A stretch of DNA of 64,000 nucleotides, from the NCBI GenBank assembly GCA_036768485.1, contig JAVLUZ010000644.1:1-64000 (forward strand). Direction: 5' to 3'. The notes beneath the pieces were generated by a model. That model saw only the letters and a list, made by a program, of their open reading frames with translations, made no database searches and was not told the DNA's origin. Source of the DNA: Mermis nigrescens (Eukaryota > Nematoda > Enoplea > Mermithida > Mermithidae). Below are positions 22,868 to 60,046 of this stretch, piece by piece. Every line of letters starts with the position of its first letter. The stretch's first letter is position 1. The position numbers and the translations under genes are program-made.

Positions 22868-23307
22868 CACGGTTTTTTATATTCGGCAAAGAGTTTTTCC
22901 GATGTACAAAGACTTTTGGGGACCGTCTTCGTACATGTACAAAGATTTTTGGGCAGACAAAAACTGGAAAAATCTTTAAAATTCGCAAAAATTTTCGGCG
23001 CTTTGCGCAGAAATGAGTAATTGTGTGTTCTATTCTATATATCTTTATGTCAGAAATTGCTATTTCGAAAGGGAAAATGTCAAATTTTTAGGCGCCGTAT
23101 TGAGACGATTATTAGTGATTTTTGCCTTCAAAAACCCAGAAATTAGCTAAAATACACTACCAAAAGTCGAACATATCTGTTTTAGCCACACTAAAATTGC
23201 TACTGTACCATATTATAGTACCCAAAAATTTGAGTGTACAAAATGTGCAAAGACTTTTAGGGACCATCTTTGTTTAAGTAGAAACTGACCTTGTACAAAA
23301 AACAATG
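22868..23307 (-). mobile_element. hAT-type MITE family B, copy 2
   Basis: A 440-bp reverse copy from CACGGTTTTTTATATTCGGC to TTGTACAAAAAACAATG. Flanks are GTCCTGCA (22860-22867) and GTCCCGCA (23308-23315), an 8-bp TSD with one mismatch. The right TSD is shared with the next element. Confidence 0.9.
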
Positions 23308-27205: not shown

Positions 27206-28037
27206 AATAGAAAACTCATCATCATCGCCAAAAATTGTCATTCTTGCTTCTTGCCTAAATCTCATTTTCTGTGTAAAACCTTATGCTAATTACGAATTAG
27301 TGACGGGACGTGAATCAATGGAATGACACTTTTTACGCGCGCCTCACAAGGTATATTGATAAATCAAAGTTTGCCAATCTAGATTCAAATATGTTTTACT
27401 TTGGGAAAGAAGCAATTAAGTCAGGAAGATCGTTCCAATTTGCATTATATTCGTGAAAGAAATCAAATTTGTTAATCGGAATGAGCGGCAGGCTGTTTAA
27501 AGACAGAATATTAATAAGTTGTTTACACCGCGAACTTGGGGTTAAGTAGATTGCAATGAATGGTTAGATTTAAGCGATTTTATGTTAAAAAAGTAAGGCA
27601 TGAGTAAAGGAAAAAATCGTTCTCAGATTTTATTTCGAAAAGAGGAGCACGTGCCATGCTCCCCCTACACCCGTGGATACGGGCCTGCATTTCAAATTTT
27701 GGTTAATTTTTTGAGGGTCTGAACAAAAGACGTTCAAAATTGGAGCGCGTATCTTGAAAAACCAGAGTTTTTTGCAAAAGGTTCCATAAGACTTAGTGTA
27801 CAGCGACGGTACGGCACCAGCTCTAATGTGTCTTTCTACATTCTATACGTATAAATTTAATGTATATATTTCTAGAAACATTATTACTGCCTTCTGTCTG
27901 CTATTTAAAACTATACGTTCCGACTTTTACTAATGCACTTTAGCCTAATTCTGAAGTTTCTTAGAATAAAAAAATATCAATACGGGGCGAATTATCGGAA
28001 ACCTTTGGTATTCTACTTCTTTTCAAGTTGAAAAATC

Positions 28038-29515
28038 GATTACTGGAAAATTGCTCGCCAACAATTGCTCGACAACAATTGCTTCTAACAATTGCTCGCC
28101 TAGCAATTGCTCGCCTAACAATTGCTCGCCAACAATTGCTCGACAACAATTTCTTCCCAACAATTGCTCGCCGAGCAGTTGCTCGCTTATCAATTGCTCG
28201 CCTAGCAATTGCTCGCCGAACAATTGCGCGCCAAACAATTGCTCGCTGAACGATTGCTCGCCGAACAGTTGCTCACCGAACAATGCTCGCCACAACACTA
28301 CTCCCCAGCAATTGCTCGCCAATTACTTGTCAAGCTTAACTCACTTATATGAATTAACATGTTCGCTTTTCATCAAGTAATATTCTATTTATCTAAAATT
28401 ATGCGCGTTACAGGGGAGGTCGGGTAGCCATTCTCAACCGTCCCCCAATCTCGCTCCACCACAAAAGGCGAAAAATTACATTCTTAGGCCATGATTTTTC
28501 CTATATTATTGAGCTAAAATTGAAGGCCATTCACCCTTCACCGTAAAACCGTAAATGGTCAGCTGCATATAGATGATTTCGGGGGTGGGGGGTTCGGGGG
28601 AGGTTCCCCCAGAAAAATTTTAACTCCCTCAGAATTTGCGATTTTTCGAAACTTCCCAAAAAATTTTCTAAAAATTCGTAGATAAGAATAAGATGCTTCT
28701 TTAAGCTTTTATAGCTACATATCCACTTGAGCTACATATCCATTTGCTTAATGGAGTCAAATTTGTGCCATATACTCATGTTTTGACTATATTTTATTTA
28801 ATTTTGTCGACTTTTTTGATTTTTTTTTGAAATTTTTCAATGATTTATGCTCTAGAAAACTAGAGCTTTGTCAGAAACGCCGATAAACGATGTTTTTGAC
28901 GCACGCGTACCTATTATTTTTGGGCCGAGAAAAGGCACTTCTTAATTCCCCTTCCCAAGAACTCCCATGCTGTGCATGTCTTGTCAGCTGTTTCCCACCC
29001 TTAACTTTGAGCCATTACATGTATGAGCCGCTAAGTGCAATAAAATTGCTTGCAGATAATCAGATTATAAATGCAAATGCAATGACTCAAAAATGTGGGT
29101 GTGAGACAGCCGACGATTTAAATGGCCTGAAAATGCAATTTATCGCCTAAATCTTGTGTTGAGGCGAGATCGGGAGGTTGACTGGCTGGAGAATCCATCA
29201 CCCAATGTCCCCTGTGACGATTGTGATTTAGACAAATACATAAAATAACACTTGATAAAAAGCATGCGTAACTAAACCGAATCAAGCTTGACAAGTGATT
29301 GGCGAGCAATCGCCTGATGGACAATTGTTTGGCTAGTAATTGTCACGCGAGCAGTTGTTAGGCGAGCAATAGTTCGGCGAGCAATTGTTCGGCGATCAAT
29401 TTTTCGGTGATTAATTATCCGGCGATAAATTGATAGGCGAGCAATTGCTAGGCGAGCGATTGCTAGGTGAGCAATTTTTGGAGAGCAATTGATGTCGAGC
29501 AATTATCCGGACAAG
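28038..29515. mobile_element. Foldback element FBa
   Basis: A 1478-bp element whose arms are the same minisatellite in opposite orientation. The left arm, 28050-28330, has about 14-15-bp units CAATTGCTCGCC(T/G)AA; the right arm, 29290-29505, has GGCGAGCAATTG units. The arms end inward in matching unique sequence (TTACTTGTCAAGCTT / AAGCTTGACAAGTGATT). Outer ends are GATTACTGGAAAATTGC and the complement of CCGGATAATTGC. Flanked by an 8-bp direct repeat, GAAAAATC, at 28030-28037 and 29516-29523. No ORF of its own; a family A MITE is nested in the centre. The architecture resembles Drosophila Foldback elements. Confidence 0.75.
28566..28982 (-). mobile_element. MITE family A, copy 4, inside FBa
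   Basis: A 417-bp reverse copy from CATATAGATGATTTCGGGGG to CCATGCTGTGCATGTCTT with a perfect 8-bp TSD, GTCAGCTG, at 28558-28565 and 28983-28990. It inserted into the centre of the foldback element and is therefore younger. Confidence 0.88.
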
Positions 29516-29523
29516 GAAAAATC

Positions 29524-30559
29524 TTTTTACCGTCTTAAGCACTATTTTATAGCTTTCTTTGCGGACACAATTTGGCAGCTGTAAAGACCTTGGACTCACA
29601 AGGTTAGGGTAAACAGGAAAGGGTGAAATATTAAATTTATTCTACAGTAATTAGGTACTACCTTACTTAACAAAATCAGGCGTAAATTGCTTGAACATAC
29701 ATTATTTTGGGCCGAAATCCCGATAATACATAACTTTCTGACCTTTCAGTGGGGGAATACCACTATACCACCCTCTCACATATTCCCATAGTTGGGGTGA
29801 GGGGGTATAACCCTTACTTCAGGGTCCAAGACTCGAATCACTGTCAGACGATTTTGAGCTATCAAACATTTTCTGCATGATTTTCGGGTACGAAAGTAGC
29901 AAAGATAATAATATTTTTAGCGCTTCGCGCCAACTAGTTGATTTCTGTTTTGTTTACCCATAACATGCCTAGAATGAAGTTATTATGATCTGAAAAGTCA
30001 AAATTACCGATTTAATAAACAAAAGTGACGAAACTATTCAGAATTAAACAGAAAGTGCTAAAAAATGCAGGTTTCCACATTAAAACATCTTATATAGGAA
30101 ACTCTAAATTTAGTGGTCCCAAATTTTAGGGTTTTACCCCTCCCCTGAAGTTTTGACCTTGGGAAACTATGCTCTCACTCCTCCCTATGTGCATGTGTCA
30201 TACAGAAGAACCCATGTTTTCTGCGCTTACAAAAAGTATACGTACCCGCGCAGATGCCTGATTAGTAATTCCTGCCTTAATATAGTTAGTAGCAGAAATC
30301 TTATATTGGTAAACAAAGTTCTTGTAAACAATCATTAATTAGTTTTATTTTCATGCTGTCTGCTACTTTTGCAGAACGTTCGTTTTATTCGTGGCGATAT
30401 AAGTCTTTCCTTAAGTGTGGATTTATCTTTGCATAAAGTTAGGGTCTGAAAAGATGACATTTCGAAATTTATCTTATCTTAATTTAGCGTAAGATTTGTC
30501 ACGAAATAAAGAATTAGAATAGTCTATATAGAATCTATTTATGCGGTAATTGAGTGTTT
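29524..30559. other. Non-coding stretch with repeat fragments
   Basis: 29700-29960 has fragments resembling the A/D families (GGGGGAATACCACTATACC, GCGCTTCGCGCCAACTAG) without readable ends. The rest shows nothing recognised. Confidence 0.35.
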
Positions 30560-30770
30560 TTTGCATTTCTAGGCTTCTTCAACACTGTTTCGGTGTTTCT
30601 AAGGATAATTAAATCTTAGGCGCTTTAATTTTAGAAAGTTAACACTTTTGAGCGAGCAGCTAATATTACTTTTCTTTTAAATTTTTTGGAAAATCGCGGA
30701 TTCTGCAAGGGAGGGGGTGAAAACTTTTCTGGGGAGTCAAACCCCTCAGATCATACACGAGCTTTATCCT
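30560..30770 (+). mobile_element. Truncated MITE family A copy
   Basis: Right half of family A: ACACTTTTGAGCGAGCAGCTA, AAATCGCGGATTCTG, a GGGAGGGGGTGAAAAC run and GATCATACACGAG. The left half is missing or unrecognisable. Confidence 0.55.
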
Positions 30771-30777
30771 TCGCCTT

Positions 30778-31222
30778 CATACAAGAGCATGAGGGGTGAG
30801 AGGGAGGTATTATACCCCCGAGCTCTAAAAAACTGATAAATATACTGCTATTTTGGCCGGAAAAGTATTGCTACATATGCTTTTCTAGGCTTAGAAAATT
30901 AGCAATACATAGTTTTTTGGGCTCAGAAAACTAGTAAATAGCCTCATTAGGACTCAGAAACTTACGGTGTGAGCTCAGAAATGCTATATAGTTGTGTTTT
31001 CTGAGTTCCAGAAGGATATATAGGTACTTTCTTGACTCCAAAAAGGGCTAAATAGCTATTTTAGTCCAAAAAGGCTATTGTAGCTATGTTTGTGAGTCCA
31101 AAAAGGCAATATAGCTAGTCTTTTGAGCCCAAAAAGGCTATATAACCGCTTTTACGAAGCACTTAGCTATCTACCAATTTTTGATTTTCACTTCTCTGAA
31201 AGTTTGACCTTGCGCACCTATG
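30778..31222 (-). mobile_element. MITE family C, copy 1
   Basis: A 445-bp element from CATACAAGAGCATGAGGGG to CCTTGCGCACCTATG. The interior is a degenerate tandem array of 40-45-bp units containing GCTATATAGC beside TTTTTGGGCTCAGAAAA. Flanks TTCGCCTT / CTCGCATT match 6/8. Confidence 0.75.
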
Positions 31223-31447
31223 CTCGCATTGCTAATATTTTTTCGACTCGCTTGGTTACGGCCGCCATTTTCTTATCTGAGCCTCCTTTTAACGGTAATC
31301 AACTGTTTTAACATAATGTGTGTATTCTTTTAAGATATTTTCATAACATAAGATTGTTTATTATTCTAACATCATTTACGTGAGAAATGATAAGAAATGG
31401 CGTCCGCCATACCTGGGCAATCCATTTTGGTTCTGAAGGTACCGGGG

Positions 31448-31915
31448 TCTCTTTTGTTGAGGTTGGTTGGTTGGTTGTTTGATTGGTTAGTTGGTTGGTT
31501 GGTTGGCCGGTTAGTTGGTTGGTTGGTTGATTGGCTAGTTGGTTGGTTGTTTAGCTGGTTGGTTGGTTGTTTGGTTAGCTAGTTGGTTGGTTGGTTGACT
31601 AGTTGATTGGTTGAGCGGTTGGTTGGTTGTTTGTTTGTTTGGCCAGTTGGTTAGTTGTTTGGTTGGGTAGATGGTTGTTTGGTTGGCTAGTTGGCTAGTT
31701 AGTTCGCCGGTTAGTTGGTTGGTTAGTCGGCTGGTTGGTTGGTTGTTTAGCCGGTTGGTTGGTTGTTTGGTTGGCTAGTTGGCTAGTTAGTTGGCCGGTT
31801 AGTTGGTTGGTTAGTCGGCTAGTTGGTTGGTTGTTTAGCCGGTTGGTTGGTTGTTTGGTTGGCTGGTTGGTTGACCGGTTAGTTGATTGGTTGGTTGGCT
31901 AGTTGGTTGGTTGTC
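31448..31915. repeat. TTGG-based minisatellite
   Basis: About 470 bp of TTGG tetranucleotide units with GTTTGGTTGGCTAGTTGG-type variants. A higher-order repeat of about 90 bp is visible (31680-31770 resembles 31765-31860). Frames such as GWLVGWLV are repeat products. Confidence 0.88.
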
Positions 31916-31929
31916 TCATTTTCTCACTT

Positions 31930-32943
31930 CTTTATTTTTGGGTCAAAAAATTCTACCCCCCATCAACAACTGTTTTTTTCTGGCGCCACCCAACTGGGGT
32001 TCTGAAGGTACCGAAGTGCCTTCTGGCGCCACTCGGTGGCGCAGGTGGCGCGGCATTGCCCACCTATGGCGTCCCCACTTATTTAGAAAAAAACTTTCTA
32101 CTTTGAAGATGTCCGCATTACAAGTACATTTTTGCACACGCAAGTCGATTCCTTTCTGCTGAAATGCACGTATAATATACGTAGTTGAACTTTCATAGTA
32201 CTCCGTTTATGACTCGAGTTCAACTCGAACTTATAGAGCATTTTATTTTGTCGTTCCGCACGTATTTTTCCTATTAATCAATTTTGTGACGTATCTTGTG
32301 CGTCATGGTTGTTTATTTTTTAAAAGACTACACTCGTCTGAGCAAGATAATTAGATCACCGCGAAGTTTATATTAAACGCTCAGCTAGTGGCGTGATCGC
32401 TATTACTTACTTTTTATGATAATGCTATACGCTTAAAAACGTTGTTTATACTTTTCTAACTTAGTTCACGTTACTTTGAAACTTGAAGAATTTTGTAATG
32501 TTTTATTCAAAATCAAGAACAGAAAGATTCTTATTAGTAAGCTTGACTGAAAGAGAAATAAGTATCAGAAACGAATTAAATTCTAATTTTCCTGAAAAAG
32601 TGCACAAAATAATACTAGAACAGTAGATTAGGGTAGATTCTTTCATGCTTTAATAAAATGTTTTGCACAGTTTTTGTTGAAAACTTGATTTTTTATAATA
32701 GTAACCGGCCTTTCCTATCCGGACGCGTCTAGGCGTGATCGACTTGGAAGTAAATGGTCGGAAAATGTGTCAAATTATGAAAAATTATTTACTATTTTTA
32801 GAAATTTGACGATTCTGTGGATTCAACCTTTTTTGTATAGGAGCGACAAACCTCCAGGATAATGTATTTTTCTATCAAAAATGCTAATGATCCTTGCTCA
32901 TAGACCGCTTGCGCTGCGCATCTGTGGTTCGACGACTCTCTAA
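31930..32943. other. Non-coding stretch
   Basis: 31960-32080 has D/F-like end sequence (CTGGCGCCACC, GGTTCTGAAGGTACC), and GGTTCTGAAGGTACCG also occurs at 31429, just left of the TTGG array. This hints at a flanking direct repeat around the array. Otherwise nothing recognised. Confidence 0.35.
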
Positions 32944-33392
32944 CAGTGCTTTTTTGTACAAGAACCGTTTGTACATGTAAAAAGATGGTACCTAAAAGTC
33001 TTTGTATATTTTGTACACACAAATTTTTGGGTACTATAATACGGTACGGTAGCGATTCCAATGTGGTAGAAACAGAGTTGCTAGACCTTTGGTAGTGTAT
33101 TTTAGCAAATTTCTGGGTCTCTGAGGGCAAAAAGCACTAAGAATCGTCTTAAAACGGCACGAAGCGCCGAAAAATTTGACATTTTTTCTTTCCAAATACA
33201 ATTTCTGCCATTATAAATATATATAGAACACAATTACTCATTTCGGCGCGAAGCGCCGAAAATTTTTGCTAATTTTAGACCTTTTTTGCAATTTTTGTCC
33301 CCCCCCAAATCTTTGTAATGTATATACAAAGACGGTCCCGAAAAGTCTTTGTACATCGGGAAAAATTTTTGCCGAATACAAAAAAAACCGTG
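32944..33392 (+). mobile_element. hAT-type MITE family B, copy 3
   Basis: A 449-bp copy starting CAGTGCTTTTTTGTACAAG and ending AAAAAAAACCGTG. Perfect 8-bp TSD CTCTCTAA at 32936-32943 and 33393-33400. It holds two palindrome modules, one nearly perfect: TTTCGGCGCGAAGCGCCGAA. Confidence 0.93.
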
Positions 33393-33554
33393 CTCTCTAA
33401 GATGATTAATTTAAAAAAGTCATGTTTTTAATTAAGAAAGCGGCAAAACTTCATTTCCAGTCAAGAAAAAAGAAAGCAAAGGCTAAAAATTCGAAAAAAT
33501 ATTGGGAAAGATTATTATCTGACTCTTGGGGCAGGTGACTACTCTGGTTAGGTA

Positions 33555-33950
33555 CAGACGTGTTCTTGGAGGGATTTAACCCCCAGAATGGCAACTGACC
33601 ACCTGCAAAATGGCTGCGACCCCCGCGGAATTATCGATTTTCTGTAAAAGTTGGTAAAAGTTCTAAAAAGTATGCCCTTTTTAAGTGTTTTTCGCTCATT
33701 TTGGCTCAAAAATCTCAAATTTTCGGCGCTTCGCGCCAACACATTTTCTTGACCTTTTTTATTTTATTAAGTCAATTTTTTAAATTTTGTTGAAATTTTT
33801 CACGTTTTTATATTCTAGAAAGAACGAGCATTGTCTGAAACGTCAAAAACAGTATTTTTGATGTGTACTTATCTTTTTTAGCCCAAAAAAGGCACTTTTA
33901 AAAAAATTTATGGGCCTGACCCCCCAGAATTCCCATGCTGTGCATGTTTG
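33555..33950 (-). mobile_element. MITE family A, copy 5
   Basis: A 396-bp reverse copy from CAGACGTGTTCTTGGAGGG to CATGCTGTGCATGTTTG. TSD GTTAGGTA / GTTTGGTA (7/8). The palindrome is present as TTCGGCGCTTCGCGCC. Confidence 0.85.
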
Positions 33951-33958
33951 GTTTGGTA

Positions 33959-34492
33959 TCTCATTGCCCAAATCGCTGTTGACTCATATTTAATGCAGAT
34001 TATCGTGGGCTTATTCTTTAATGAGTGTAGTACATTGTGTAACTAGAACAACACTGCGTTCACTAAAACGGAATTTTTTAGCTTAGTTGCGTGCTCAATA
34101 TACCAGTGCTTTGCTTAATGGTTTCCTGTAATTCTAATAGAAAATTGTGGTTTATATGCGTCATTGCCTTAGGTCTTATTTTACGGGCTATTTACATTTC
34201 CTCTCGCTTGGGCATTAAATTTCTTATTTTCATCTTATTTTTCTGAGGTTGCCTAGTAACCACTTCATTATTGGAATGCGGTATTCGATTTCCTTTCATT
34301 CGAATAGAGAATAATTGTATTGTGGTGAAATTTCTGGTACGGCAAATTACGCACAATAAATAATGCAAATAACGGTTTACACTTACACACTTAGTACAGC
34401 GGCTTAATTAGCTTGAACTTATGCTTATTTCATCGGCGAATTTAAATGTAAAAACTACGATTTATAAACACTAACCATTTTCACATTCAGGC
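33959..34492. other. Non-coding stretch
   Basis: AT-rich, no repeats or exons recognised. Confidence 0.35.
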
Positions 34493-34835
34493 CTTAGGTG
34501 CGCAAGGTCAAACTTTCAGAGGGAACCAAAAATCGGTGGGTAGCTACATGCTTCGTAAAAACGGGTCCATAGCCTTTTTGGGCTCAGGAAATTAACTATA
34601 TAGCCTTTTTGGGCTCAGAAAACTAGGTAAGCTATATAGCTTTTTTGGGCTCAAAACAGTTACGACTTACATAGCCTTTTTGGACTAAAAATAGCTATTT
34701 AGCCCTTTTTGGAGTCGAAAAATAGCTATTTATCCTTTTTAAACAAAAAAATACAAGTATACATAGCATTTCTGAGCTCGCACAATAAGTTTCTGAGTCC
34801 GAAAAAAGCTATATAGCAAGTTTTCTCATTTTTTC
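34493..34835 (+). mobile_element. Truncated MITE family C, copy 2
   Basis: Starts with the family's right-hand end (CTTAGGTGCGCAAGGTCAAA) and continues through units of TATATAGCCTTTTTGGGCTC. The distal end (CATGCTCTTGTATG in copy 3) is missing, so no TSD. Confidence 0.7.
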
Positions 34836-35412
34836 TGCTATTCCAATTTATAGCCCAGCTTATTTAATGACTAGGCTCTGAGTCTATTACACGAAGCTGC
34901 TTGACTGCCAGGTATTCTCGCATTTTGAGAATGTTCATTTTACTATTTTTTCAATGATCACTCTCCTGTACGCAACAGGTAGCCTCTGCGACATGACGTT
35001 CTTGTTCTTCATTAAAGTTGCGCTTTTTCTTTTTATCTACGCTTAAATTTCACTGTTTATTGATTCTATAGATTGACACTGATGAGCCGCTTAGAACAAG
35101 ATTTTTCTGGTTTAATTAGTAGTATAGGTGCCAGATTGCACTAAATTGCTGTCTTTCTTTTCGCATCGCACATCACTTACCTTGCGAGAATACACAAAGC
35201 GCTCACAATTATTGCCGGCATACAGCTCTGCTTACAAGTGAGTTATAATATGTAGCTTACGTCATTATGTCATTATTTGTCTCTTCGGTCGATTTTCAGT
35301 CCTTTATTTACTTTCACTTTCGCTATGTAATTTTTAAAAAAAACTAAAAAAATTTACAGTAGTCGCATTAGAGCGTCCTACTTTACATAAAGAATTACGC
35401 ACTTTTTATTCT

Positions 35413-35747
35413 AAGACTTACTGCTGATATATGAAATGCTTAATCAATTCCTTTGTTATTATTTTCCCATTATATATTGTTCACTAATGTTCAGTTTGAT
35501 CAAGCGTTTCTTCCGGCTGCTCGATTTCGCGGAATATAAGGAGGAACCTGATTGCGCTATCGGCTACCCTTTTTCGTTCCTGTTCCATATAAGTATTATC
35601 GGAACTTTTTCTCAGTCAAAATATCCATGTGGAATTTTCGTACGATGTCTGTGCTCACTCATACTCGTAATTGTAGTACAATTTTCGCTTGCTCGATTTC
35701 TCAATTTGCATTTACAATCGCCTAGCAATATAAAAACAATAATGATA
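35413..35747 (+). CDS. Possible exon of a multi-pass membrane protein
   Basis: After a T-rich acceptor (TTTTTATTCTAAG, 35412) a frame runs about 111 codons to a possible phase-1 donor, GTAATC, at 35748. It shows hydrophobic stretches (FLCYYFPIIYCSLMFSLI; LCSLILVIVVQFSLARFL) separated by a polar segment, DFAEYKEEPDCAIGYPF, with good codon variety, which is why I list it. AT-rich DNA gives hydrophobic frames by chance, and I do not recognise a family. Confidence 0.28.
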
Positions 35748-36829
35748 GGTAATCATAAATATCCTTCATAACATCATCGTATAGACGGGGTGAAGTCTAT
35801 AATTGCTCATAACGTTTTTTCTTTTGATCTGTTCTGTTGACTACTCAGCTGTCGTGAGCTTATAGCTTTTTCTACTACTTGATCTGTAATTATCGCGAAG
35901 CGAACGCTTTAAGTATTTGTAATGATTTTGTCCTAAACGCGACCAAAAACGACACTTTAACTTAGCATTTTGTGATCGTTATGGATAAAGCATGTCCAAA
36001 AACGTCAGAAAATGCGGCTTTTACTAGCTATCCCAACTTAGTTTCCAAAATATAACCCGAAATATATTGGGTCCGCCCCTTGGGCGAATCCTGCATACCT
36101 ACCTGCCTGACGTTAGGCAAGAACCAAGTTTTGCTCAAACAGGTGGAGCTGACTCTTTCTCTATTAATTATATTGTTGGCTCGGGTAATAAAATAGTTCC
36201 TAACGTGAATAAAATGTATTTGGAAAACATTACCTACCTTCTTTCCCCTTAAGATGAGGCCCCTTAAGATGGGGTCTAGTATTGATTCCTAATGAGACAG
36301 CACGAGTCAAAATAATCTTTATTTTTAAAAGCGTATTAGAAACGTCTTTTAAGTAGAGTCGAAACAGTAAACATATTTTGATAATAAATATTTCTAGGAA
36401 CGACCTTCTGATTTTTGTTCCGCATAATTTTTTGCAACTCTAATAGATAGTCAATTTTTGCTAAACCAAAAAATCTGGAAAATTTTCTCCGGAGGAAGAG
36501 GTTTTTAAAACAAAGCTAGTGTACATATAAATAAGAAGACGATTCAAATTCAAAATAATCATAGGGGCTCCTTTAAACTAAAGTCATCAGTGCCAAATTT
36601 TGTGAGAAGTTCTTAACAACATCTGTTTTGCGCATACATGTAACAGCTTGAAATTTTGGGCGAGGATCATCTGCCATTTTTTAGGAGGGAGGGGTAAATG
36701 ACCTCCAATTTTTGGCCAAAAACGGCCAAAAAACACGTGTAATCTCGCTATTGACCCGAGTTTTCAAATTTAAAACTGCACTCCTTATCAGAAACATCAA
36801 GCAGACCGTGACTCTCTAAAAGGTGCGCC

Positions 36830-37063
36830 ATGAATGAGTTTTTGCATCATACACTTTTGATTTTGATTTTGCCATTACTGTATTTTATCGTTCGGACGGC
36901 GCTCAGAAATAGTATCGCGATCTTGGATAAGATCAGTTCGATTTCCTCTTATTTTTTCATTCAAAAATACTTGTTTCTCTTAATCATTCCTGCTTTTATT
37001 TTTAGTTATGTACCGCAAATAGCGAGCAGACGCATGCATTGTACACGCGCACTCGTTTTATGA
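36830..37063 (+). CDS. Hydrophobic ORF, possible terminal exon
   Basis: A frame of 77 codons with two hydrophobic segments (LLILILPLLYFIV and KYLFLLIIPAFIFSYV) and a basic C-terminus. The stop TGA overlaps AATAAA (TGAATAAA). If the exon at 35413-35747 is real, this could be a later exon of the same gene, but phases were not resolved. It could equally be chance. Confidence 0.2.
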   Translation: MNEFLHHTLLILILPLLYFIVRTALRNSIAILDKISSISSYFFIQKYLFLLIIPAFIFSYVPQIASRRMHCTRALVL

Positions 37064-37369
37064 ATAAAAGACGTTAGTAATGTTTCGTATTGAATAAAAC
37101 CTAACGATTTTATGCTGGACGACGGCGGGTACAATGGACTTTAAATTCAATTCATTTGTTTCTGAAGGTCCTTATGTCGTAGAAAACTGTTTTTCCTGTA
37201 TTGCTTTCAAAACTTTTAGTCTATTCGTGTGAGCAAAGGAGTAGGTAGCAGATTTTGGCGAGGTTGTATCTACTGTTTATGTGCATCTAGTGAGAAGTAT
37301 TTCTTTCGTCGAGAAATGAGATACATGTAAAAGAATAACGATTTTTGTGTAATGTTTACGGGATGACGA

Positions 37370-37409
37370 ATAATGATAATAATAATAATGATAATAATAA
37401 TAATAAAAC

Positions 37410-37450
<41 letters not shown>

Positions 37451-37463
37451 TAATAATAATATC

Positions 37464-37525
<62 letters not shown>
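37370..37525. repeat. ATA/AAT trinucleotide microsatellite
   Basis: About 155 bp of AAT repeats with a few GAT, ACA and ATC interruptions. Confidence 0.97.
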
Positions 37526-37526
<1 letters not shown>

Positions 37527-38384
37527 TATTGATATTAATATTATAATAAAGCGAATACGCTTATCTATTTTATTTGATATTCACTATTAAGGTTAGACCG
37601 TTTACTATGTTTCCGATAAAGAAATGTTCATTCATGAAAAATTCAGCGATAAGCTTCAGAATGAAAGTTTGGGAATCGTATGATTTGGAAAATGGTGGAA
37701 CATCAGAATTTTTACCACCTTCCAAATGATTACCTGTCTAAAACACTTGTGAGTTATTAAGTTGGAACAATATTACAGAGCAACATAAACATTTAAATTT
37801 CTTCAAAATGATTAAGTTCGGACATACAACGACTTTTCTCCAGAACACGTTTTTTCCAGAAAATTGTGTCTGCGTGCTCAGCCATTAATTCTGCCCGCTG
37901 AATGCAGTGAGTGTTGAAAACCGTTATCGATATGCGCTAAAAATACCGATGTCATGCCCAACACATCCATAATGTGCGTATTATCTTTAGTTACGGACAC
38001 AATAATCATTCCTATTTCGGTCTGCACCGCGTGACTAGCGCTACCTATACCTACTAAGAAAAGTTTATAAAACTTAAATAGGTAAGCTAAAAATAACAAA
38101 CGGACCCGGTTTCTATAAAGTAAACCAGGCTTTAAGCTCGACTTAGGCCTCACTTAAGTCTAGCTTCAGACTTAGGCCTCACTTAAGTCTGGCTTGAATG
38201 CATCGATTTCATAGAAATCAGTTTGATTCTTACTTCTGGCTTAAGCCAGGTTTGGACCATAGTTTTTAGAAACCGATAAGCCAGGCTTAAGACGCGCTCA
38301 ATTTTAAGACCGCTTAATGAATAGGTGGCCGCATGTCAGAAAGGCAGCTTGAAAACAACAATCCAAGATGGGCGTGGTGGTTTA

Positions 38385-38480
38385 TTGAGACTTTTTAGAT
38401 TTCAGATTTTTTGATTTAAATTTAAGATTTTAGATTAGATCTCGATTCTAGATTTTTAGATTTTAGATTTAGATTTTAGG
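38385..38480. repeat. TTTTAGA low-complexity tract
   Basis: Repeats of TTTAGATTTTAGA and variants over about 95 bp. Just upstream (38120-38300) several CTTAAG-containing direct and inverted segments (GGCCTCACTTAAGTCT twice; AAGCCAGGCTTAAG) suggest a decayed element. Confidence 0.6.
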
Positions 38481-39146
38481 TCTCTATAATGTACATCGTT
38501 TTACATGTTTTTAGACAGCGAGACTGGCAAGTTGTAATCATATCCAGATTTTTAGTGGCCGCAACAATCATTTTATCGTAGAAAACGCTAGAATTTTCGC
38601 GTGATATCGTTGCTTGTGCTATTTGCATTTGCTAAATTTGTGAATAGGCAGCTGTCGAATTTAAAGAATCGCAGCTAAGAAATACCGTGGAGGATATACA
38701 ATTGTATTAGCTCACCTCACTTGATGTCAATCTCTTAGTCCAATTATTTGGTAACGCCCCGGGTGACCGACAGTCCCGGGTCACCTACAAATAGTATAAA
38801 AATCGATCTGTCAATCAAAAAATTCCTGAATGACCGACAGTACCTACTGGCCGACTGTTCCGAGTGGCCGACAGTCTCGGGTGGCCGACTATACCGGGTG
38901 TCCGACAGTTCCGGGTGGCCGACTGTACCGGGTGGCCGACCGTACCGGGTGGCCGACAGTCCCGAGTGGCCGACACTGTACCTGGTGATCGATAGATGTC
39001 ATAAAAATTCCCAAATGACCCGGTTGTACTATTGCTATGAATATATGGGTCGGATGCACTTCCGCCACATAGGTCACATCCGCCGTCTAGGTCAGTTCCG
39101 CCGCATAGTTCATTTCCGCCGCATAGTAGTACGGAACAGTCGCAAT

Positions 39147-39408
39147 CACACCTGGGCATGGGGTTTTGGGGGTATGCACCCCCGAGAAACCAAAATATCC
39201 CCCAGAAATCAAAATAACCCCCAGAATTCAATTTTTGAAATATTTTTTCGTTTTCTTCCTTAATTTTTTGATGCCAATGAATAGTGCTCGATGAGAAAGG
39301 TCGAAAAATAGTGTTTTTTCGCCATACCACCATTTTCAAGGCCATTTTTGACCTTTGAAGAATTTTGCACACCCCCCCACCCCAATATTTTCTCGCTGCC
39401 CACGTATG
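39147..39408 (-). mobile_element. MITE family D, copy 2
   Basis: A 262-bp copy from CACACCTGGGCATGG to GCTGCCCACGTATG. TSD GTCGCAAT / ATCGCAAT (7/8). Body motifs TTGATGCCAATGAATAGTGC and GTTTTTTCGCCATACC match D1. Confidence 0.85.
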
Positions 39409-40238
39409 ATCGCAATCGTTATTAATTTTACAAAGTGCATTTTAGAGCAGTAGCATTTGAAACATAGTACTTATACGGGTTTCCGTTCAATTAAACAAAT
39501 GTAATAAAAGTTTTTAGTAAAAAATAAAATGTCCGACTTAGATATCCGAGTTCAGTTATTAGGTAGCTCTTTGATAGTCATAATGCCATATTATGCAGCA
39601 TTGGATAAGCAGTTATTTTATGGATCATCTTGAAAACTTCAATCAATAAATGAGGTTAGGCAAAATTTTACCACGCATTCATTGTTAAAAATTGAATTTT
39701 AAATGAGCTTTTTTGTCGAAAAATTTATTTTGCGCTCACTGCTAAAAATGAACCCTATTTTGTGAAAAAAAATCGATTGAATCCGTTGTACTCCGTTCGT
39801 GAGTGCCCAGAGTACACAAAAACATTTTGCCAAATTTTATGTAATACTGCCAAGTTTAATTGTTACGTTGCGATTTGGCTCTCTAAAATGGATTTTGGTG
39901 AAGCTAATGCAGCCTTAAGTACAAGACTTAATAAATCTGTTATCCAGTATACTTTGCGCATTCACGATCATAGAATATATATAGAATTCCGTAAACAAAG
40001 CTTCCGAGTTCTTCGAGATCGTGTCCCAACACTGCCACCCGTCCCAACACTGCCACCACGAGTCCCAACGCTGCCACCGTCCCAACATTGCCACCGTCCC
40101 AACACTGCCTCTGCGAGTCCCAACACTGCCACCACGAGCCCCAATACTGCCACCACGAGCCCCAACACTGCCACCGCGAGTTCCAGCATGCATACAGCGA
40201 GTCACACATGGACCTCATTGGGGGGAGGGGGTTGTAAA

Positions 40239-40372
40239 CATACGTGAGCAGCAAGAAAATTCTTGGGGGAGCAGGATGAGTAAAATCGCCAAAAATGTTA
40301 CTAAAAATTGAATTTTTCAAGTAAGGGGGTTTCAACTTTTTGGGGAGGGTACAAACCTCCCACGCCCATGTT
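40239..40372 (+). mobile_element. Short MITE family F, copy 2, inside FBb
   Basis: A 134-bp copy from CATACGTGAGCAGCAAG to CCCACGCCCATGTT. TSD GTTGTAAA / ATTGTAAA (7/8). It sits within another D/F-like sequence (about 40206-40495), which ends in GCTGCTCACATG. Confidence 0.65.
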
Positions 40373-40830
40373 ATTGTAAACCCCTAAAACTTCAAACTCC
40401 CCGAATCAGGCGGATCTTCCACAACTGTGTTTTTGGCTTTTTCCTCAATGTTTGCCCCATAATATCCACTCCCAGAATTAAGTCGCTGCTCACATGTAAT
40501 TAAAAGCATTAAGTACACAACGTTCATGGAAATTTAATGGTGGGGTCGCCAGTGAAGGGTAGAATCAAGAACTTGTTAGATGCTAAATCTTAAACTTTTT
40601 TGCGTAGTAATTCTTTGTTGCATTTATAATGTATTGTCATGTCAAAGTTGCCTAGAAAACAGAGGAATAACCAATATAGTGTGCTTATCGTGATAGTACA
40701 ACTCGAATGCGCAGTCCGCACGGACATAAATCTCACATTGAAATTTTAGAAAAATATGCTTATTGAGTCTTTGTCCCTTTCTCACACTTTTTTGTATTCT
40801 GATATCAAATACCTTAGCAGTAATTTCCTT

Positions 40831-40991
40831 CAGGAAGGTAGCTGGCCGTCTTATTTTGGGGGGACCAACATCAATTTTTGGGGACTAAACCCAAAAATAG
40901 CACAGAATAACGTTTAAAAAGTCCTATTTTTCCGATTTTTTGAATTGGGGTGGGGTTCGGACCCCCCATTCCCCCCAGAGCTACGTGCCTG
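40831..40991 (+). mobile_element. MITE family G, copy 1, inside FBb
   Basis: A 161-bp element from CAGGAAGGTAGCTGGCCGTC to AGAGCTACGTGCCTG with a perfect 8-bp TSD, ATTTCCTT (40823-40830, 40992-40999). Internal motif AAATAGCACAGAATAA is shared with copy 3. Confidence 0.88.
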
Positions 40992-43461
40992 ATTTCCTTG
41001 AGTCTAAATGCTTGATTTTAGCCTAGCAAATACGTACCTACCATGCATGCCCCAAATGTTAGGCGTTTTTGCAACAAAATTTCCGTGCATTGCATGTGTC
41101 TGCCAACAAACTTGGGACTCGCGGTGGCAGTGTTTGGACGGTGGCAATGTTGGGACGGTGGCAGTGTTGGGACGGTGGCAGTGTTGGGACTCGCGGTGGC
41201 AGTGTTGGGACTCGCAGTGGCAGTGTTGGGACTGGTGGCAGTGTTGGGACGGTGGCAGTGTTAAGACTCGCGGTGGCAGTGTTGGGACTCGCGGTGGCAG
41301 TGTTTGGTTGGACTGGTGGCAGTGTTGGGACGGTGGCAGTGTTGGGATAGTGGCAGTGTTGGGACGGTGGCAGTTTTGGGACGGTGGCAGTGTTGGGACT
41401 CGCGGTGGCAGTGTTGGGACTCGCAGTGGCAGTGTTGGGACTGGTGGCAGTGTTGGGACGGTGGCAGTGTTGGGACGGTGGCAGTGTTGGGACTCGCAGT
41501 GGCAGTGTTGGGACTGGTGGCAGTGTTGGGACGGTGGCAGTGTTGGGACGGTGGCAGTGTTGGGACTCGCGGTGGCAATGTTGGAACTCGCGGTGGCAGT
41601 GTTGGGACTCGCGGTGGCAGTGTTTGGACTGGTGGCAGTGTTGGGACGGTGGCAGTGTTGGGACGGTGGCAGTGTTGGGACGGTGGCAGTGTTGGGACAT
41701 TGGCAGTGTTGGGACGGTGACACTGTTGGGACTACACCTTCTTCGAGATGGTGGAATTAACGAATATTGGCTTTGTATTGATTGTGAAAATTTGTGGAAA
41801 GTGCAAGATGCTAACAACGCGAATCAGTTTGCTGTTATTAATTGAAAACGATGTTTTATTAGTCATCGAATAATTTTCTTATGTAAGAAAACCTTAATAA
41901 TGTAGGTGGTTCGCATCGTGAGAATTATTTACCATAAATTACCTTAAACGTGGCTAAAGATGACACTTTTTACAGCCAATATAGTAGAAAATTATTGAAA
42001 AGTACCCATTCTATAACCTTGTGTTGAAAAATGAAGGAAAATGCAGTTTTTACCGACTATCTCAGCGAAGTTTACTAGAAATAAGACCATTTCATGTTGG
42101 GTCCGCCCCCTCACTTTGGCGAATCGTAGCGCATATAGCAATTATTCCGTAATATGCGGCGAAACTGTATTAAGCGGCGGAAGTGACCTATGCGGCGGAA
42201 GTGAACTATGCGGCGGGAATGCACCCCAATCGAATGTATGTACGTTACGTATTTTATGTATGCGTGCACGTACATTTTTTCAACATTTTTTCAAAAATCG
42301 AAATACGTAATTTTTTCATTCTCTCAGAATAGCAACAAAGTTTTCACTGGCATAAATGTGAATATGAATTTATTACATGTACATATTGTATAAACTTATT
42401 AAATGTACATATTTAATATAAACTATCAAGACTAAAACTGTTGTATTAAAGATTCATTTTTGTCCAGTCGTCGTTAAGATCTTGAGTTATATACTTATAT
42501 TCCTGTGCGCGTTAAATTCGGCCTACAGCGTAGTTTCGCATGCGCAATGGAATGCAAAAGCAATGAAAAAACCTCATTTGCATTCTGAATCGGGCGGATA
42601 CTTAATCCCTGTTTTTGCCAAAATAAACATTTTTAAAAGGAGCCTATAGAGTGCTCAGTAGTTTCGCTTGAAAAATGGAGGCGATTTCGGTTTAGCTGCC
42701 TTTATAAATACGATTCACGGTAATTCAACTTTGCTAAAGTGCGAAAGCCGTGCATATCCGACGCGCTCCGCTCCCATGATGGGGATACAATTGATTACTT
42801 TGAATGTAACGGTTGTGCAAAGGTTGGAAATGAAAAATCTCGAATAACCGTTAGGAATTCGCGAATTTTAGAAAAATCACTCACTTGGCTTATTTGCATA
42901 CCAAGGGCGTAGTCAGGGAGGGGCATGGGGAGTACGTTCCCCCGAAATCGTTCAGAAATTCTTTTGGTTTTTATGTGTAATAGTTAGTAACTAACATCGG
43001 GTTCGAAAAGGCCTAAATGTCGAAATTTTTCGGCGCTTCGCGACACACTGATAAATTTGGGCATTCTTTTATTGTTAAAAACTGAGAAACTGGCTGCACA
43101 AAAGTCTTGGCTACGCCTCTGTTTATTAGTTGGATTAATTGTCGAGTAAATCATTTGATGGCACTTTCGCAGCACTGAAGTTACACAAATGTGTAGCTGA
43201 AATTTTGCAGCCACGATAAGTTTAAGTTGGATAGCACTACAATATTACGCGTTGTAAATAATAGGCCTTTTTTTACAAAATCCTGCATGTTTTAAATTTG
43301 CTATGAATTCATATGAGCAATGTTATTGCATTGGTAAAACTATTTATGTGCATAAATAGGTACCTACTTGAAAAGCAATAAATCTGAAATTATAAGTCAG
43401 TTAGGAATTTTTATGACAAACCTATTATAATACCACTTGTCGGTCACCCGGGACTGTCGGC

Positions 43462-43709
43462 CATAGGTGGGCAGCACCAAAATTCTGGGGGAGGGGGTGA
43501 AAAAATTTTTAAAGGTCAAAAAATGGTCTTAAAAGTGGTCGTAAGGTGGAAAACACCATTTTTCGTCGTTTCTCATCGAGCACTATCCAATGGCATCAAA
43601 AAATCGCCAAAAGCAGAAAAAAATTTCAAAATTTGAATTTTGGGGGGTTATTTCAACTTCTGGGGGTGCATACCCTTCCCCCAAACCCCTCCCCCCACGC
43701 CCACGTGTG
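43462..43709 (+). mobile_element. MITE family D, copy 3, in the FBc arm
   Basis: A 248-bp copy from CATAGGTGGGCAGCACC to CGCCCACGTGTG with a perfect 8-bp TSD, CTGTCGGC, formed from one minisatellite unit of the foldback arm. It must be younger than the arm. Confidence 0.92.
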
Positions 43710-43946
43710 CTGTCGGCCACCCGGTACAGTCGGCCATCCGGGACTATCGGCCACCTGGTACAGTCGGCCATCCGGAACTGTCGGCCACCCGGTACAGTCG
43801 GCCACTCGGGACTGTCGGCCAGACGGGAATTTTTATTGACAGATCTATTTTCGAAACCATTTGTCGGTCACCCGGGACTGTCGGTCACCCGGAATTGTCG
43901 GTCACCCGGAACTGTCGGTCACCCAGAATTGTCGGTCACCCGGGAC

Positions 43947-44245
43947 CAGTGTTTTTTTAGCGCCGCCCCCTTGAGCGCAGCCGCTAACGATGTTCTGAAG
44001 CCATCAGTGCCATGAAATCCTCATCAGCGCAATGATAAATCGGATGTTATACAATGTACACAAAGTGAGTTTAGATTTTTGAACCTCCTTCACCTTGTTT
44101 CTCCTCTTGCTTCTCTCACCTTTAATTTTTTACTCATTTTATGTTTAAAATATGCAAATTTTTTGCATTAGCGCTCTGCGCTAATGGTCCAAATTTTTTA
44201 TTAGCGCGCGGCCAGTTTCATTAGCGAGGCGCTAAAAAAACAGTG
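43947..44245. mobile_element. hAT-type MITE K
   Basis: A 299-bp element with 18-bp TIRs CAGTGTTTTTTTAGCGCC and CACTGTTTTTTTAGCGCC (one mismatch). Perfect TSD CCCGGGAC at 43939-43946 and 44246-44253, inside the last unit of the FBc right arm. CAGTG end plus 8-bp TSD fits hAT. Inner sequence differs from family B, although the first 12 bases match. Confidence 0.93.
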
Positions 44246-44411
44246 CCCGGGACAAAATCGTCTATTTTACTCCGGTGCTTGAGACCCGGTATAAGGATGC
44301 AAAAATTATTTTTAAAAGTCGCAGTACCTGCATTAGTGATTTTCGGTTCGGTAGGTAGGTGAAAAAATATTTTATCGAGTAAAACGGCATGTTTCAACCT
44401 ATGGCTTTTTC

Positions 44412-45336
44412 GATTGTGTCTCAAGAGCCCCACCAGTCTCAACAGCCCCACCGTCCCAACAGCTCCACCGTCCCAACAGCCCCACCAATAATCCCAACAA
44501 CCCCACCAATCCCAACAGCCCCACCGTCCCAACAACCCCACCGTCCCAACAGCCCCACCAATAATCCCAACAGCCCCACTAGTCCCAATTGCCCCACCAA
44601 TCCCAACAGCCCCACCGTCCCAACAACCCCACCGTCCCAACAGCCCCACCAATTATCCCAACAGCCCCACTAGTCCCAAGAGCCCCACCAATCTCAGCAG
44701 TTCCACCGTTCCAGCAGTCCTACCGTTCCAACAGTCGCACTGTCCCAACCACACATAAGCTTGGAGGGAGGGGATGTTTAGAGTATAACCCCCTTTAACT
44801 CCCAAATTATGGTAGACCCCAGAATTCTATATTTATCAATTTACCCCACCAGAATTTTCGCCGCCAATTTTGGTTGCAACTACCCCACTGTTATAATCAT
44901 AGCTTCATAGCTGCACGGCACGATCGGTCTGGAGAAGGAGTTTTGAGCCAAAAATGACCTCAAAACTGGCATGAATGTTAAAATAGCGTAAAAACTACGC
45001 TAATCCACATTTTCTGGCTATTTTGAAGCAGATTAGCGTGAAAGTTTTGATTTTTATTGAATTTTAACACTTCACATCGATCTATGCATGCAATATGCAG
45101 CTACATTTGGGCAGTACGTACTTTCCTACCTAAATTGTACGTACATGCTGTTCTTTTTATGATCAAACGGAGCCCGTATAAGTTCAATAATTCAAAAGTA
45201 CATCCGCCAAACGCACTTCTCGCATAATAGCAATCGCAGTAATGGTGCGGCTGCTGGGATTATTGGTGGGGCTGTTGGGCGGTGGGTGTTGGGACGGTGG
45301 GGCTCTTGGGACTGGTGGGGCTCTTGAGACATCAAC
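44412..45336. mobile_element. Foldback element FBd
   Basis: A 925-bp element. Left arm 44420-44750 of units CCCCACCGTCCCAACAG; right arm 45245-45336 with inverted units (GGTGGGGCTGTTGGG). Outer ends are GATTGTGTCTCAAGAGCC and the complement of GTTGATGTCTCAAGAGCC. Flanks GGCTTTTTC (44403-44411) and GCCTTTTTC (45337-45345) agree at 8/9. The centre is filled with F- and E-type MITE sequence. Confidence 0.75.
44895..45070 (+). repeat. MITE family E fragment
   Basis: Shares GCACGGCACGATCGGTCTGG, AAAATGACCTCAAAACTGG, GTTAAAATAGCGTAAAAACT and ACATTTTCTGGCTATTT with 9620-9890 and 53065-53345. Ends and TSD not resolved. Confidence 0.6.
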
Positions 45337-45389
45337 GCCTTTTTCTGGGGGCCAAACCTTTTAAAACACGTTTATGTAAATGCGACGGC

Positions 45390-50448: not shown

Positions 50449-50881
50449 CGCGGTTTTTTTGTATTTGGCAAAGAATTTTTCCGATGTACAAAGACTTTTA
50501 GGGACCGTCTTTGCGCATGTAGAAAGATTTTTGGGAAGGCAAAAACTGCAAAAAAGTCCAAAATTCCCAAAAATTCTCGCGCCGAAATGAGTAATTGTGT
50601 GTTTTATGCATCTTTATAATGGCAGAAATTGCATTTAGACAAGGAAAAATGCCAAATTTTTCGGCGCTTCGCGTCGTTTCAGACAATTAATAGTATTTTT
50701 TGTCAGAAACCCAGAAATTAGCTAAAATACACTACCTAAGGTCGAAAAACCTTGTTTTACCGCTCTAAAAGCGCCACTGTACTATGTTTTAGTGCACAAA
50801 AATTTGCACATACAAAATGCACAAAGACTTTTGGTGACCATTTTTGAAGAAGCATCAAGGGACCTCATACAAAAAATACTG
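50449..50881 (-). mobile_element. hAT-type MITE family B, copy 4
   Basis: A 433-bp reverse copy from CGCGGTTTTTTTGTATTTGG to CATACAAAAAATACTG. Perfect TSD CTTTGCAC at 50441-50448 and 50882-50889. Confidence 0.93.
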
Positions 50882-51386
50882 CTTTGCACAGATGCGAATG
50901 AAAATCTTGAAAACGGAGCAACCTCAATGTTTATAATGTTAAGAGCTGATTATCCGCACAAACAGAGTTAATTTTCCTTTGCGCAAATGCGGATGAGGGT
51001 CATGCAAAATAAAAGAGCCCTGCCACTGGCATCAATCAGCTCAAAAACTTGGGTTGCCATGCCTGGTACGCTTTTAGGTAATTTTTTGTGACCATCCAGG
51101 GAAACTTCAGAAGACGATGAAAAGTTATATTTCAGAAAAACCGTGGAGGGGGAGGTGAAATTGAATAGGAGAAAATCAAAAAACTTCTAGGAGAATGGTC
51201 ATAATGCATCAACACGTATTAAGGAGTGCTTGTTTACTGATATAGGTAAATTTTTTTCCGAAGTTCTATTCTTATAAAATATGCTCTAAAATAATCAGAT
51301 GTTAGATTTAGGAGAATTGCAAAATTGGAGGGGAGCTTTTGGGGACAGTTCATTTTGAGCCCAATTTCCATATAGGTATTCCTAAA

Positions 51387-51696
51387 CAGTGTTTTTTTTG
51401 TACAAGATCCATTTGTACATGTACAGAAATGGTCCCCAAAAGTATTTGTACATTTTGTACATGCACATTTTTGTGTACTATAATATGGTACCGTAGCGAT
51501 TTTAGTGTGGTAAAACAGGGTTTTTCGGCCTTTGGTAGTGTATTTTAGCTAATTTCTGTGTTTCTGACGCCAAAAATTACTAAAAATTGTCTTGAAACGG
51601 CGCCGAAAAATTTGACATTTCTCCATTCTAAATGCAAATTTTGTCATTTTAAAGATATATAGGACAAACAATTACTCACTTCGGCGCCAAGCGCCG
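51387..51696 (+). mobile_element. MITE family B, copy 5, 3'-truncated
   Basis: Begins CAGTGTTTTTTTTGTACAAG like other B copies but stops after the internal palindrome (CGGCGCCAAGCGCCG), 310 bp in. Flanks are nevertheless TTCCTAAA (51379-51386) and TTCCTAAG (51697-51704). It ends only 77 bp before the EGF-gene exon at 51773. Confidence 0.75.
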
Positions 51697-59672: not shown

Positions 59673-60046
59673 CACTTTTTTTGAATCGGCAAAAATTATT
59701 CCCAATGTACAAAGACTTTTCGGGACCGTCTTTGTACACGAACAAGATTTTTGGGAAGTCAAAACCCGCAAAAAAGGTCAGAACTTCGCAGAAATTTTCG
59801 GTGCTTCGTGCCGAAATGAGTAATTGTGTGTCCTATATATCTTTAAAATAGCAGAAATCGCATTTCGCAAGGAAAAATGTCAAATTTTTCGGCGCTTCGC
59901 GCCGTTTAAAGACGATTCTTAATTCGCTACTAAAGGTCGAACGACTCTACTACACTAAAGCCGCTACCGTACTATATCATAGCACCCAAAAATTTGTGTG
60001 TACAAAATGTACAACGACTTAAACGGACCTTGTACAAAAAACACTG
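59673..60046 (-). mobile_element. MITE family B, copy 6, inside the hAT element
   Basis: A 374-bp reverse copy from CACTTTTTTTGAATCGGC to TTGTACAAAAAACACTG. The flanking 8-mers TCTGGAAG / CCTGTACG match only 5/8, so the TSD has decayed or the copy is rearranged. Palindrome present (TTCGGCGCTTCGCGCCG). Confidence 0.82.

What the first reader, a model, noticed from the sequence alone, without database searches (positions are those of the whole stretch)
28038..45336. A group of foldback elements, each with its own minisatellite as inverted arms
Five structures (28038-29515, 38750-44259, 39048-42231, 40020-41738, 44412-45336) have arms made of tandem short units in opposite orientation. The unit differs in every one: CAATTGCTCGCC, GGGTGGCCGACAG, TTCCGCCGCATAG, CCCAACACTGCCAC, CCCCACCGTCCCAACAG. 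Most readable outer ends start GAT or GGT, and flanking direct repeats of 8-9 bp are seen for four. So a common end seems to carry quickly changing arm repeats. This resembles Drosophila Foldback elements in plan, but unrelated arm sequences behind similar ends are striking.
Basis: partly seen in the sequence, partly recalled or inferred. Interest (0 to 1): 0.82.

Follow-up and report, generated by a model that had tools for sequence, protein, structure and literature searches.

The report
Foldback transposons in a mermithid worm
The five structures are real jumping-DNA elements whose ends are built of short repeats facing each other, with related copies spread through this worm's genome; they resemble a known type from other nematodes, so the find adds new, unusually varied members to a known kind.

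Summary
In detail: five foldback transposons, D nested in C and C in B. Four of five have 8-9 bp target-site duplications (combined P about 4e-7). The host is most likely the mermithid nematode Mermis nigrescens. All five arms match many places in its genome. For D, 18 of 20 fetched loci are inverted pairs; of 14 copies with both ends recognised, 8 have a perfect 8-bp duplication and 13 carry one GAT-type and one GGT-type end, in one polarity to the interior (16 of 16). So ends are two different caps outside the arms, as in Tm1 of root-knot nematodes. In the same genome 4 of 16 inspected MULE transposase loci lie between inverted 15-bp minisatellite arms with 9-10 bp duplications; Pfam confirms FLYWCH+MULE (Phantom type) for two of them. 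There the arm unit tracks the transposase lineage. Arms differ between families rather than changing quickly behind one common end. The transposase that moves A-E was not found.

The parts
28038..29515 (.). Element A: foldback transposon, 15-bp unit (CAATTGCTCGCCGAA); target-site duplications 28030-28037 and 29516-29523 (GAAAAATC)
   Evidence: 98 arm matches genome-wide, own match included; genomic copy L057 with perfect 9-bp duplication ACTCAACCC
28049..28331 (+). A left arm, about 16 units
29292..29504 (-). A right arm, about 12 units in opposite orientation
28332..28492 (.). A inner, non-repetitive part of the inverted repeat; partner about 29122-29291
   Evidence: alignment; BLAST pair 28120-28492 / 29122-29504, 73%
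38750..44259 (.). Element B: foldback transposon, 17-bp unit (CCGACAGTACCGGGTGG) with spacer blocks; contains C, D and a hAT-like MITE; no clear duplication, so its ends rest on likeness to the D and E ends
   Evidence: 61 arm matches genome-wide, own match included
38758..38990 (+). B left arm
43438..44252 (-). B right arm, interrupted by a G-rich repeat (about 43462-43700) and by the MITE
43947..44245 (.). 299-bp hAT-like MITE (CAGTGTTTTTTTAGCGCC ends) inserted in B's right arm, 8-bp duplication CCCGGGAC
   Evidence: the class is recalled from end sequence and duplication length
39047..42231 (.). Element C: foldback transposon, 18-bp unit (CACTTCCGCCGCATAGGT), nested in B; duplications 39039-39047 and 42232-42240 (GAATATATG/GAATGTATG; with 9 bp the element starts at 39048)
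   Evidence: 51 genome matches to its left end, of which 40 of the 41 long ones (own match included) start at base 1 of the query
40017..41738 (.). Element D: foldback transposon, 17-bp unit (CCCAACACTGCCACCGT), nested in C; duplications 40009-40016 and 41739-41746 (TTCTTCGA)
40024..40188 (+). D left arm, about 8 units; cap GATCGTG at 40017-40023
41112..41731 (-). D right arm, about 33 units with a 209-bp higher-order period; cap GGTGTAG (read outside to inside) at 41738-41732
44412..45336 (.). Element E: foldback transposon, 17-bp unit (CCCAACAGCCCCACCGT), arms related to D; duplications 44403-44411 and 45337-45345 (GGCTTTTTC/GCCTTTTTC)
   Evidence: 62 genome matches to its left arm, own match included
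44419..44749 (+). E left arm, about 15 units; cap GATTGTG at 44412-44418
45243..45330 (-). E right arm, about 4 units; cap GTTGATG (read outside to inside)

Best explanation
These are non-autonomous DNA transposons, most likely of the Mutator-like (MULE) superfamily, Phantom type, with foldback arms. Each family has a long inverted repeat made of 15-18 bp tandem units, capped at either end by a different short motif of about 7 bp that lies outside the inverted repeat. A transposase made elsewhere in the genome (inferred) binds the units, cuts at the caps and inserts the element at a staggered cut that leaves 8-9 bp duplications. Several transposase lineages exist side by side, each with its own unit, so families with unlike arms result. 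Within a family the arms lengthen or shorten by duplication of blocks of units, as minisatellites do (inferred).
For: Shown: inverted minisatellite arms in all five and duplications at four. D copies at many unlike flanks: 18 of 20 fetched loci are paired arms; with the window's D that makes 19, of which 14 have both caps recognised; of these 14, 8 have perfect 8-bp duplications, 2 have 7/8, and 13 have one GAT-type and one GGT-type cap. Cap polarity relative to the interior is the same in 16 of 16 copies where the GAT end is known. The GGT-cap pattern has 161 genome matches at up to 2 mismatches, with 0 for the reversed control. A copies: L057 has a perfect 9-bp duplication and caps GATTACC/CGTGTGC, each followed by GGA, the cap+GGA plan of Tm1 (PMC3169594). 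Same genome: 60 MULE-domain matches; of 16 loci fetched, 4 lie between inverted 15-bp minisatellite arms (L053, L054, L068, L071), three with perfect 9-bp duplications and the cap pair GGAATC/G(G)GTCT, L053 with 8-10 bp. The L053 and L054 transposases are FLYWCH+MULE. Three transposase groups carry three units. Twenty ORFs read from the five elements show no transposase domain. Inferred: that this type of transposase moves A-E.
Against: No autonomous copy with the caps or units of A-E was found. D uses 8-bp duplications whereas the armed MULE loci use 9-10. Only 4 of 16 MULE loci show both arms; 4 more show a like array on one side, 1 (L072) has a 14-bp array cut off by the edge of the stretch, 7 show none (2 of those are ZSWIM-type). 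B has no duplication. The unit core shared with the MULE arms (RACANT) is not significant for A-D alone (P 0.18). Of the 14 end-recognised D copies, 4 have neither a perfect nor a 7/8 duplication (L039 6/8; L037 and L045, one insertion seen twice, 5/8; L035 2/8 with two like ends), and 5 of the 19 paired copies lacked one or both caps. The A copy L059 has both caps but no duplication. For C, E and B the two caps rest on single window copies.
Confidence: 0.8

Rival explanations
1. One transposon with a single common end keeps replacing its arm repeats, so all five are recent variants of one family.
For: Ends share G.T (P 0.0035); the GAT-type caps of B, D and E resemble each other (GATTTTG, GATCGTG, GATTGTG); D and E arms 71% alike; units share a weak RACANT core with MULE arms.
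Against: The E arm is conserved over many copies (86-95% at 39 other places); D and A have their own cap pairs, repeated copy after copy (D; A); duplication lengths differ (8 for D, 9 for A copy L057).
Confidence: 0.1
2. Families B, D and E belong to another superfamily with 8-bp duplications (for example Merlin, P or KDZ) and only look like the MULE foldbacks.
For: D has 8-bp, not 9-bp, duplications; no listed MULE match lies inside or near a listed D place (lists compared by eye; both lists are incomplete).
Against: MULE duplications of 8-11 bp are described (PMC6446971, passages); cap-plus-arms architecture is the same as in the armed MULE loci.
Confidence: 0.12
3. The inverted arrays are recombination products or assembly artefacts, not mobile elements.
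For: Nested palindromes are hard to assemble; one pair of D arrays on C48 is mirrored about 218 kb apart, and L037/L045 are one insertion present twice.
Against: Duplications, unlike flanks and constant caps in many copies; window arms are about 70-95% alike, not read-through palindromes.
Confidence: 0.01

Closest known systems
Tm1 elements of root-knot nematodes (Mutator/Foldback, Phantom type; PMC3169594)
   Same: Inverted repeats of variable numbers of short tandem units (Tm1 mostly 14 bp), different 7-bp motifs at the two ends outside the inverted repeat, GGA next to them (also in A), 8-10 bp duplications, nesting, mostly non-autonomous copies, FLYWCH+MULE transposase (here in other families of the genome).
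   Different: Here five unit families in the window plus three units at MULE loci in one genome; D uses 8-bp duplications; sequence relation of caps or units to Tm1 was not tested; the transposase for A-E is not known.
Rehavkus (known here from passages of PMC6446971 only)
   Same: 9-bp duplications, long inverted repeats, minisatellite part, MULE-related.
   Different: That paper gives a PHD finger and a minisatellite before the 3' end only; here FLYWCH and minisatellites at both ends.
Drosophila FB, Tetris, Galileo (foldback in form; Tetris passages of PMC4079207 read, FB recalled, Galileo from passages and listings)
   Same: Modular inverted repeats with tandem units; Tetris has 8-10 bp duplications.
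   Different: Tetris units are about 220 bp; Galileo has a P-type transposase. No sequence relation tested.
Sea urchin TU elements (recalled; paper not held)
   Same: Heterogeneous elements with inverted arms of 15-bp tandem repeats and 8-bp duplications, as recalled.
   Different: Not comparable here; no text or sequence seen.

Membership tests
Foldback-form transposons | Long inverted repeats with internal tandem units | tested here: met
   All five in the window; 18 of 20 fetched D loci
Foldback-form transposons | Target-site duplication of constant length per family | tested here: met
   D: 8 of 14 end-recognised copies perfect at 8 bp, 2 more at 7/8; one A copy perfect at 9 bp; B, C and E copies could not be fetched
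Tm1-type Phantom MULE foldbacks | Two different about 7-bp caps outside the inverted repeat | tested here: met
   D: 13 of 14, polarity 16 of 16; A: L057 and L059; B, C and E only from single window copies
Tm1-type Phantom MULE foldbacks | GGA motif inside the cap | tested here: inconclusive
   Present at A ends (window and the readable ends of L057-L061); not seen in B, D, E; unclear in C
Tm1-type Phantom MULE foldbacks | 8-10 bp (mostly 9) duplications | tested here: met
   8 bp in D, 9 bp in L057, L054, L068, L071
Tm1-type Phantom MULE foldbacks | FLYWCH+MULE transposase encoded by an autonomous copy of the same family | tested here: inconclusive
   Found between minisatellite arms of other families (L053, L054 by Pfam; L068, L071 by MULE-domain match, and similarity), not with A-E caps; 16 of 60 MULE matches inspected
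Tm1-type Phantom MULE foldbacks | Sequence relation to Tm1 caps, units and purine-rich motif | not tested
Rehavkus | PHD-finger transposase | tested here: not met
   Armed MULE loci L053 and L054 have FLYWCH and no PHD-finger match; A-E have no transposase to test
Helitron/Helentron with tandem repeats | No terminal inverted arms, no duplication (recalled) | tested here: not met
   Inverted arms and duplications present

The most novel reading that the evidence does not exclude
The minisatellite unit is the transposase's binding site and is exchanged as a module: in each transposase lineage a variant unit is amplified until it replaces the old array at both ends, while the caps stay, so that co-resident MULE lineages become insulated from one another and shed their parasites. 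The lineage-to-unit match in three transposase groups and an A-like ACAATTGCTCG stretch inside the L054 left arm fit this.
Probability: 0.25. Interest if true: 0.65.

Novelty: new member of a known kind. Interest (0 to 1): 0.45.

Why it matters
One genome holds many foldback families with unlike minisatellite arms, together with MULE loci that carry the same plan around open transposase frames. This makes it possible to test whether arm repeats are binding sites that co-evolve with the transposase, and whether such transposons are a steady source of new minisatellites. If the host is Mermis nigrescens, it also extends Tm1-like elements from root-knot nematodes to a distant nematode lineage whose genome is reported as 84% repeats (PMC10989877, passages).

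Tried and rejected
Assembly artefact: rejected by duplications and unlike flanks. Helitron-type elements: rejected by inverted arms. Rehavkus membership: rejected on the FLYWCH domain. A fixed 9-bp duplication fits the window's A, C, D and E with 1, 1, 0 and 1 mismatches, but the D copies show 8 bp, so this was dropped. A unit core shared by all families (RACANT): 0 of 300 shuffles reach the score for A, B, C, D plus three MULE units, but P = 0.18 for A-D alone, and 1 of 63 orientation flips equals the score (3 of 127 for the set of ten units); it is only suggestive, and the sets were chosen after looking. The long D copies L032 and L033 were read for a transposase: none seen by eye in ORF lists of 90 aa and more, not scanned with Pfam. 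Repeats with 31-bp units (30778-31220, 34495-34826, 55788-56252) are copies of a different repeat with unlike ends, not foldbacks of this kind. A scan of viral contigs with a D unit pair found nothing. A Kunitz exon search for the host found nothing. Genome counts of the D GAT cap and of the A, B, C and E caps were asked for but did not complete. Papers: PMC3169594 passages and section 5; PMC6446971, PMC4079207, PMC10989877 and PMC10879605 passages; others only in search listings. No paper on foldbacks in Mermis appeared in the rows shown (12 of 12; 13 of 13) or 111 (10 of 667).
Full report
What is there. The window holds five foldback structures as described. Tandem Repeats Finder and inverted-repeat searches give arms with units of 15 (A), 17 (B), 18 (C), 17 (D) and 17 bp (E) in opposite orientation. 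D lies inside C and C inside B; A and E stand alone. A's inverted repeat continues for about 160-170 bp beyond its minisatellite, and B's arms hold spacer blocks found in both arms. D and E arms are 71% alike, so not all units are unrelated. A 299-bp hAT-like MITE with an 8-bp duplication sits in B's right arm.

Chance. Four of five elements have duplications that rarely arise at random positions with the same freedom (A 0.0015, C 0.009, D 0.0005, E 0.009; B 0.36; combined 3.6e-7). Between duplication and arm lie about 7-8 bases that match poorly between left and right, although the arms just inside match well. Among the four elements with duplications, G at position 1 and T at position 3 fit 15 of 16 letters; 7 of 2,000 random sets reach this with free choice of positions and letters.

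Host. The window belongs to an assembly of 523,963,438 bases in 860 contigs. Mermis nigrescens was published with 524 Mb in 867 scaffolds (PMC10989877, passages). An ARL2-like exon at 10308-10778 has its best hit, 67% identical, in Romanomermis culicivorax, another mermithid; the next hits by E-value are 60-61%, and two unnamed proteins are 81% identical over only 40% of the query. The exon shares an insertion with Romanomermis. The species name is an inference from these.

Genome-wide copies. Queries from the arms matched 102 (D), 98 (A), 61 (B), 51 (C left end) and 62 (E) stretches. These counts include the window's own match and overlapping pieces of one array, and only 40 candidates per search were scored, so they are not copy numbers. 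Of 20 fetched D-arm loci, 18 are plus-then-minus pairs; two showed one array only. With the window's D that makes 19 paired copies. Both caps were recognised, at up to two mismatches, in 14. Of these, 13 have one GAT-type and one GGT-type cap, and one (L035) has two GGT-type caps and no duplication. Eight have a perfect 8-bp duplication, two 7/8, one 6/8, two 5/8 (L037 and L045, the same insertion seen twice) and L035 2/8. The five copies left out (L034, L040, L042, L043, L046) lacked one or both caps within two mismatches. The caps were located by similarity; the duplications were not. Where the GAT end is known it is always next to the same interior end, 16 of 16 (L034 and L035 undecided; L046 rests on a weak cap), and interiors are about 84-94% alike where they align. 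The GGT cap with its first unit matches 161 places at up to two mismatches, against 0 for the reversed pattern. E's left arm recurs at 39 other places with 86-95% identity, nearly always over its full length, so arms are stable within that family. For C, 40 of 41 long matches (own included) start at the first base of the element. In A copies the caps are GATTACC and CGTGTGC or CGTGTCC, each followed by GGA. Of six fetched, L057 has both caps and a perfect 9-bp duplication, L059 has both caps but no duplication, L058, L060 and L061 show one cap, and in L062 only a plus array was found.

Transposase. Twenty ORFs from the five elements show no transposase domain; three weak matches to other families are below their cut-offs. 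Nor do 20 of 115 other window ORFs of at least 70 aa. The genome has 60 MULE-domain matches. I fetched 16, with 2-3 kb on each side. Four have inverted 15-bp minisatellite arms on both sides of the transposase ORF: L053, L054, L068 and L071. L054, L068 and L071 have perfect 9-bp duplications and the caps GGAATC and G(G)GTCT; L053 has an 8-10 bp duplication. L066, L067, L069 and L070 have a like array on one side. L072 has a 14-bp array cut off by the edge of the stretch. The other seven show none; arms farther out would have been missed. Pfam was run on seven proteins from six of the 16 loci: L051, L053, L054 and L056 are FLYWCH+MULE, L052 and L055 are ZSWIM-type. Protein comparison gives a group L051/L053/L066/L067 (96-100%), a group L054/L071 (98% over 141 aa) with L068 (58-60%), and a pair L069/L070 (93%), with about 40-56% between groups. 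Their units are GGACATTTTTTCCC, GACAATTGGTAGG and GACATTTCGCCCC respectively; L051 has no array. So the unit follows the transposase lineage.

Mechanism. Shown: mobility of D and A (constant ends, unlike flanks, duplications), two-cap ends in these families, and a Phantom-type transposase within the same architecture in the same genome. Inferred: that such transposases bind the units and mobilise A-E in trans, and that arms grow by block duplication (a 209-bp period in D's right arm, 73 and 91 bp in E, 102 bp in A).

Known relatives. Tm1 of Meloidogyne has the same plan: different 7-bp motifs at the two ends, GGA, 13-15 bp tandem units, 8-10 bp duplications and a FLYWCH+MULE transposase (PMC3169594, passages and section 5). 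What differs here is the number of unit families in one genome and the 8-bp duplications of D. Membership of A-E in the Phantom type is likely but not proved, because no autonomous copy with their caps was found. I rate this a new member of a known kind.

Noticed in passing
30778-31220, 34495-34826, 55788-56252: Three copies of a roughly 330-470 bp repeat holding 31-bp units in both orientations, with unlike ends; a different class from the foldbacks.
   Followed up: partly
4704-6874 and L033:6085-7744: A 21-bp tandem array in the window; a very similar array (by its translation) lies inside the long D copy L033.
   Followed up: no
9996-10410, 22873-23307, 32950-33392, 50454-50891, 51394-51696, 59676-60020: A roughly 300-440 bp dispersed repeat in both orientations, about 69-82% alike.
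   Followed up: no
18671-21388: An open 905-aa endonuclease/reverse-transcriptase ORF of a LINE, best database relative 46% identical.
   Followed up: partly
L035: A D-family copy with two GGT-type ends and no duplication, next to another foldback arm; the Tm1 paper describes a similar case.
   Followed up: partly
G000:C48:17587243-17588626 and 17805706-17807089: Two D-type arrays mirrored about 218 kb apart with identical scores; a large palindrome or an assembly feature.
   Followed up: no
L066:3022-4301: A 220-bp, 99% matching tandem array stands where the right arm of a MULE element would be expected.
   Followed up: no
L072:4166-4301: A 14-bp tandem array (GGCGCCGAAACGGC) about 1.8 kb from a MULE ORF, cut off by the edge of the fetched stretch.
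   Followed up: no
39147-39408, 43462-43666, 12749-13011, 60975-61166: A G-rich dispersed repeat found inside C and B and elsewhere in the window.
   Followed up: no
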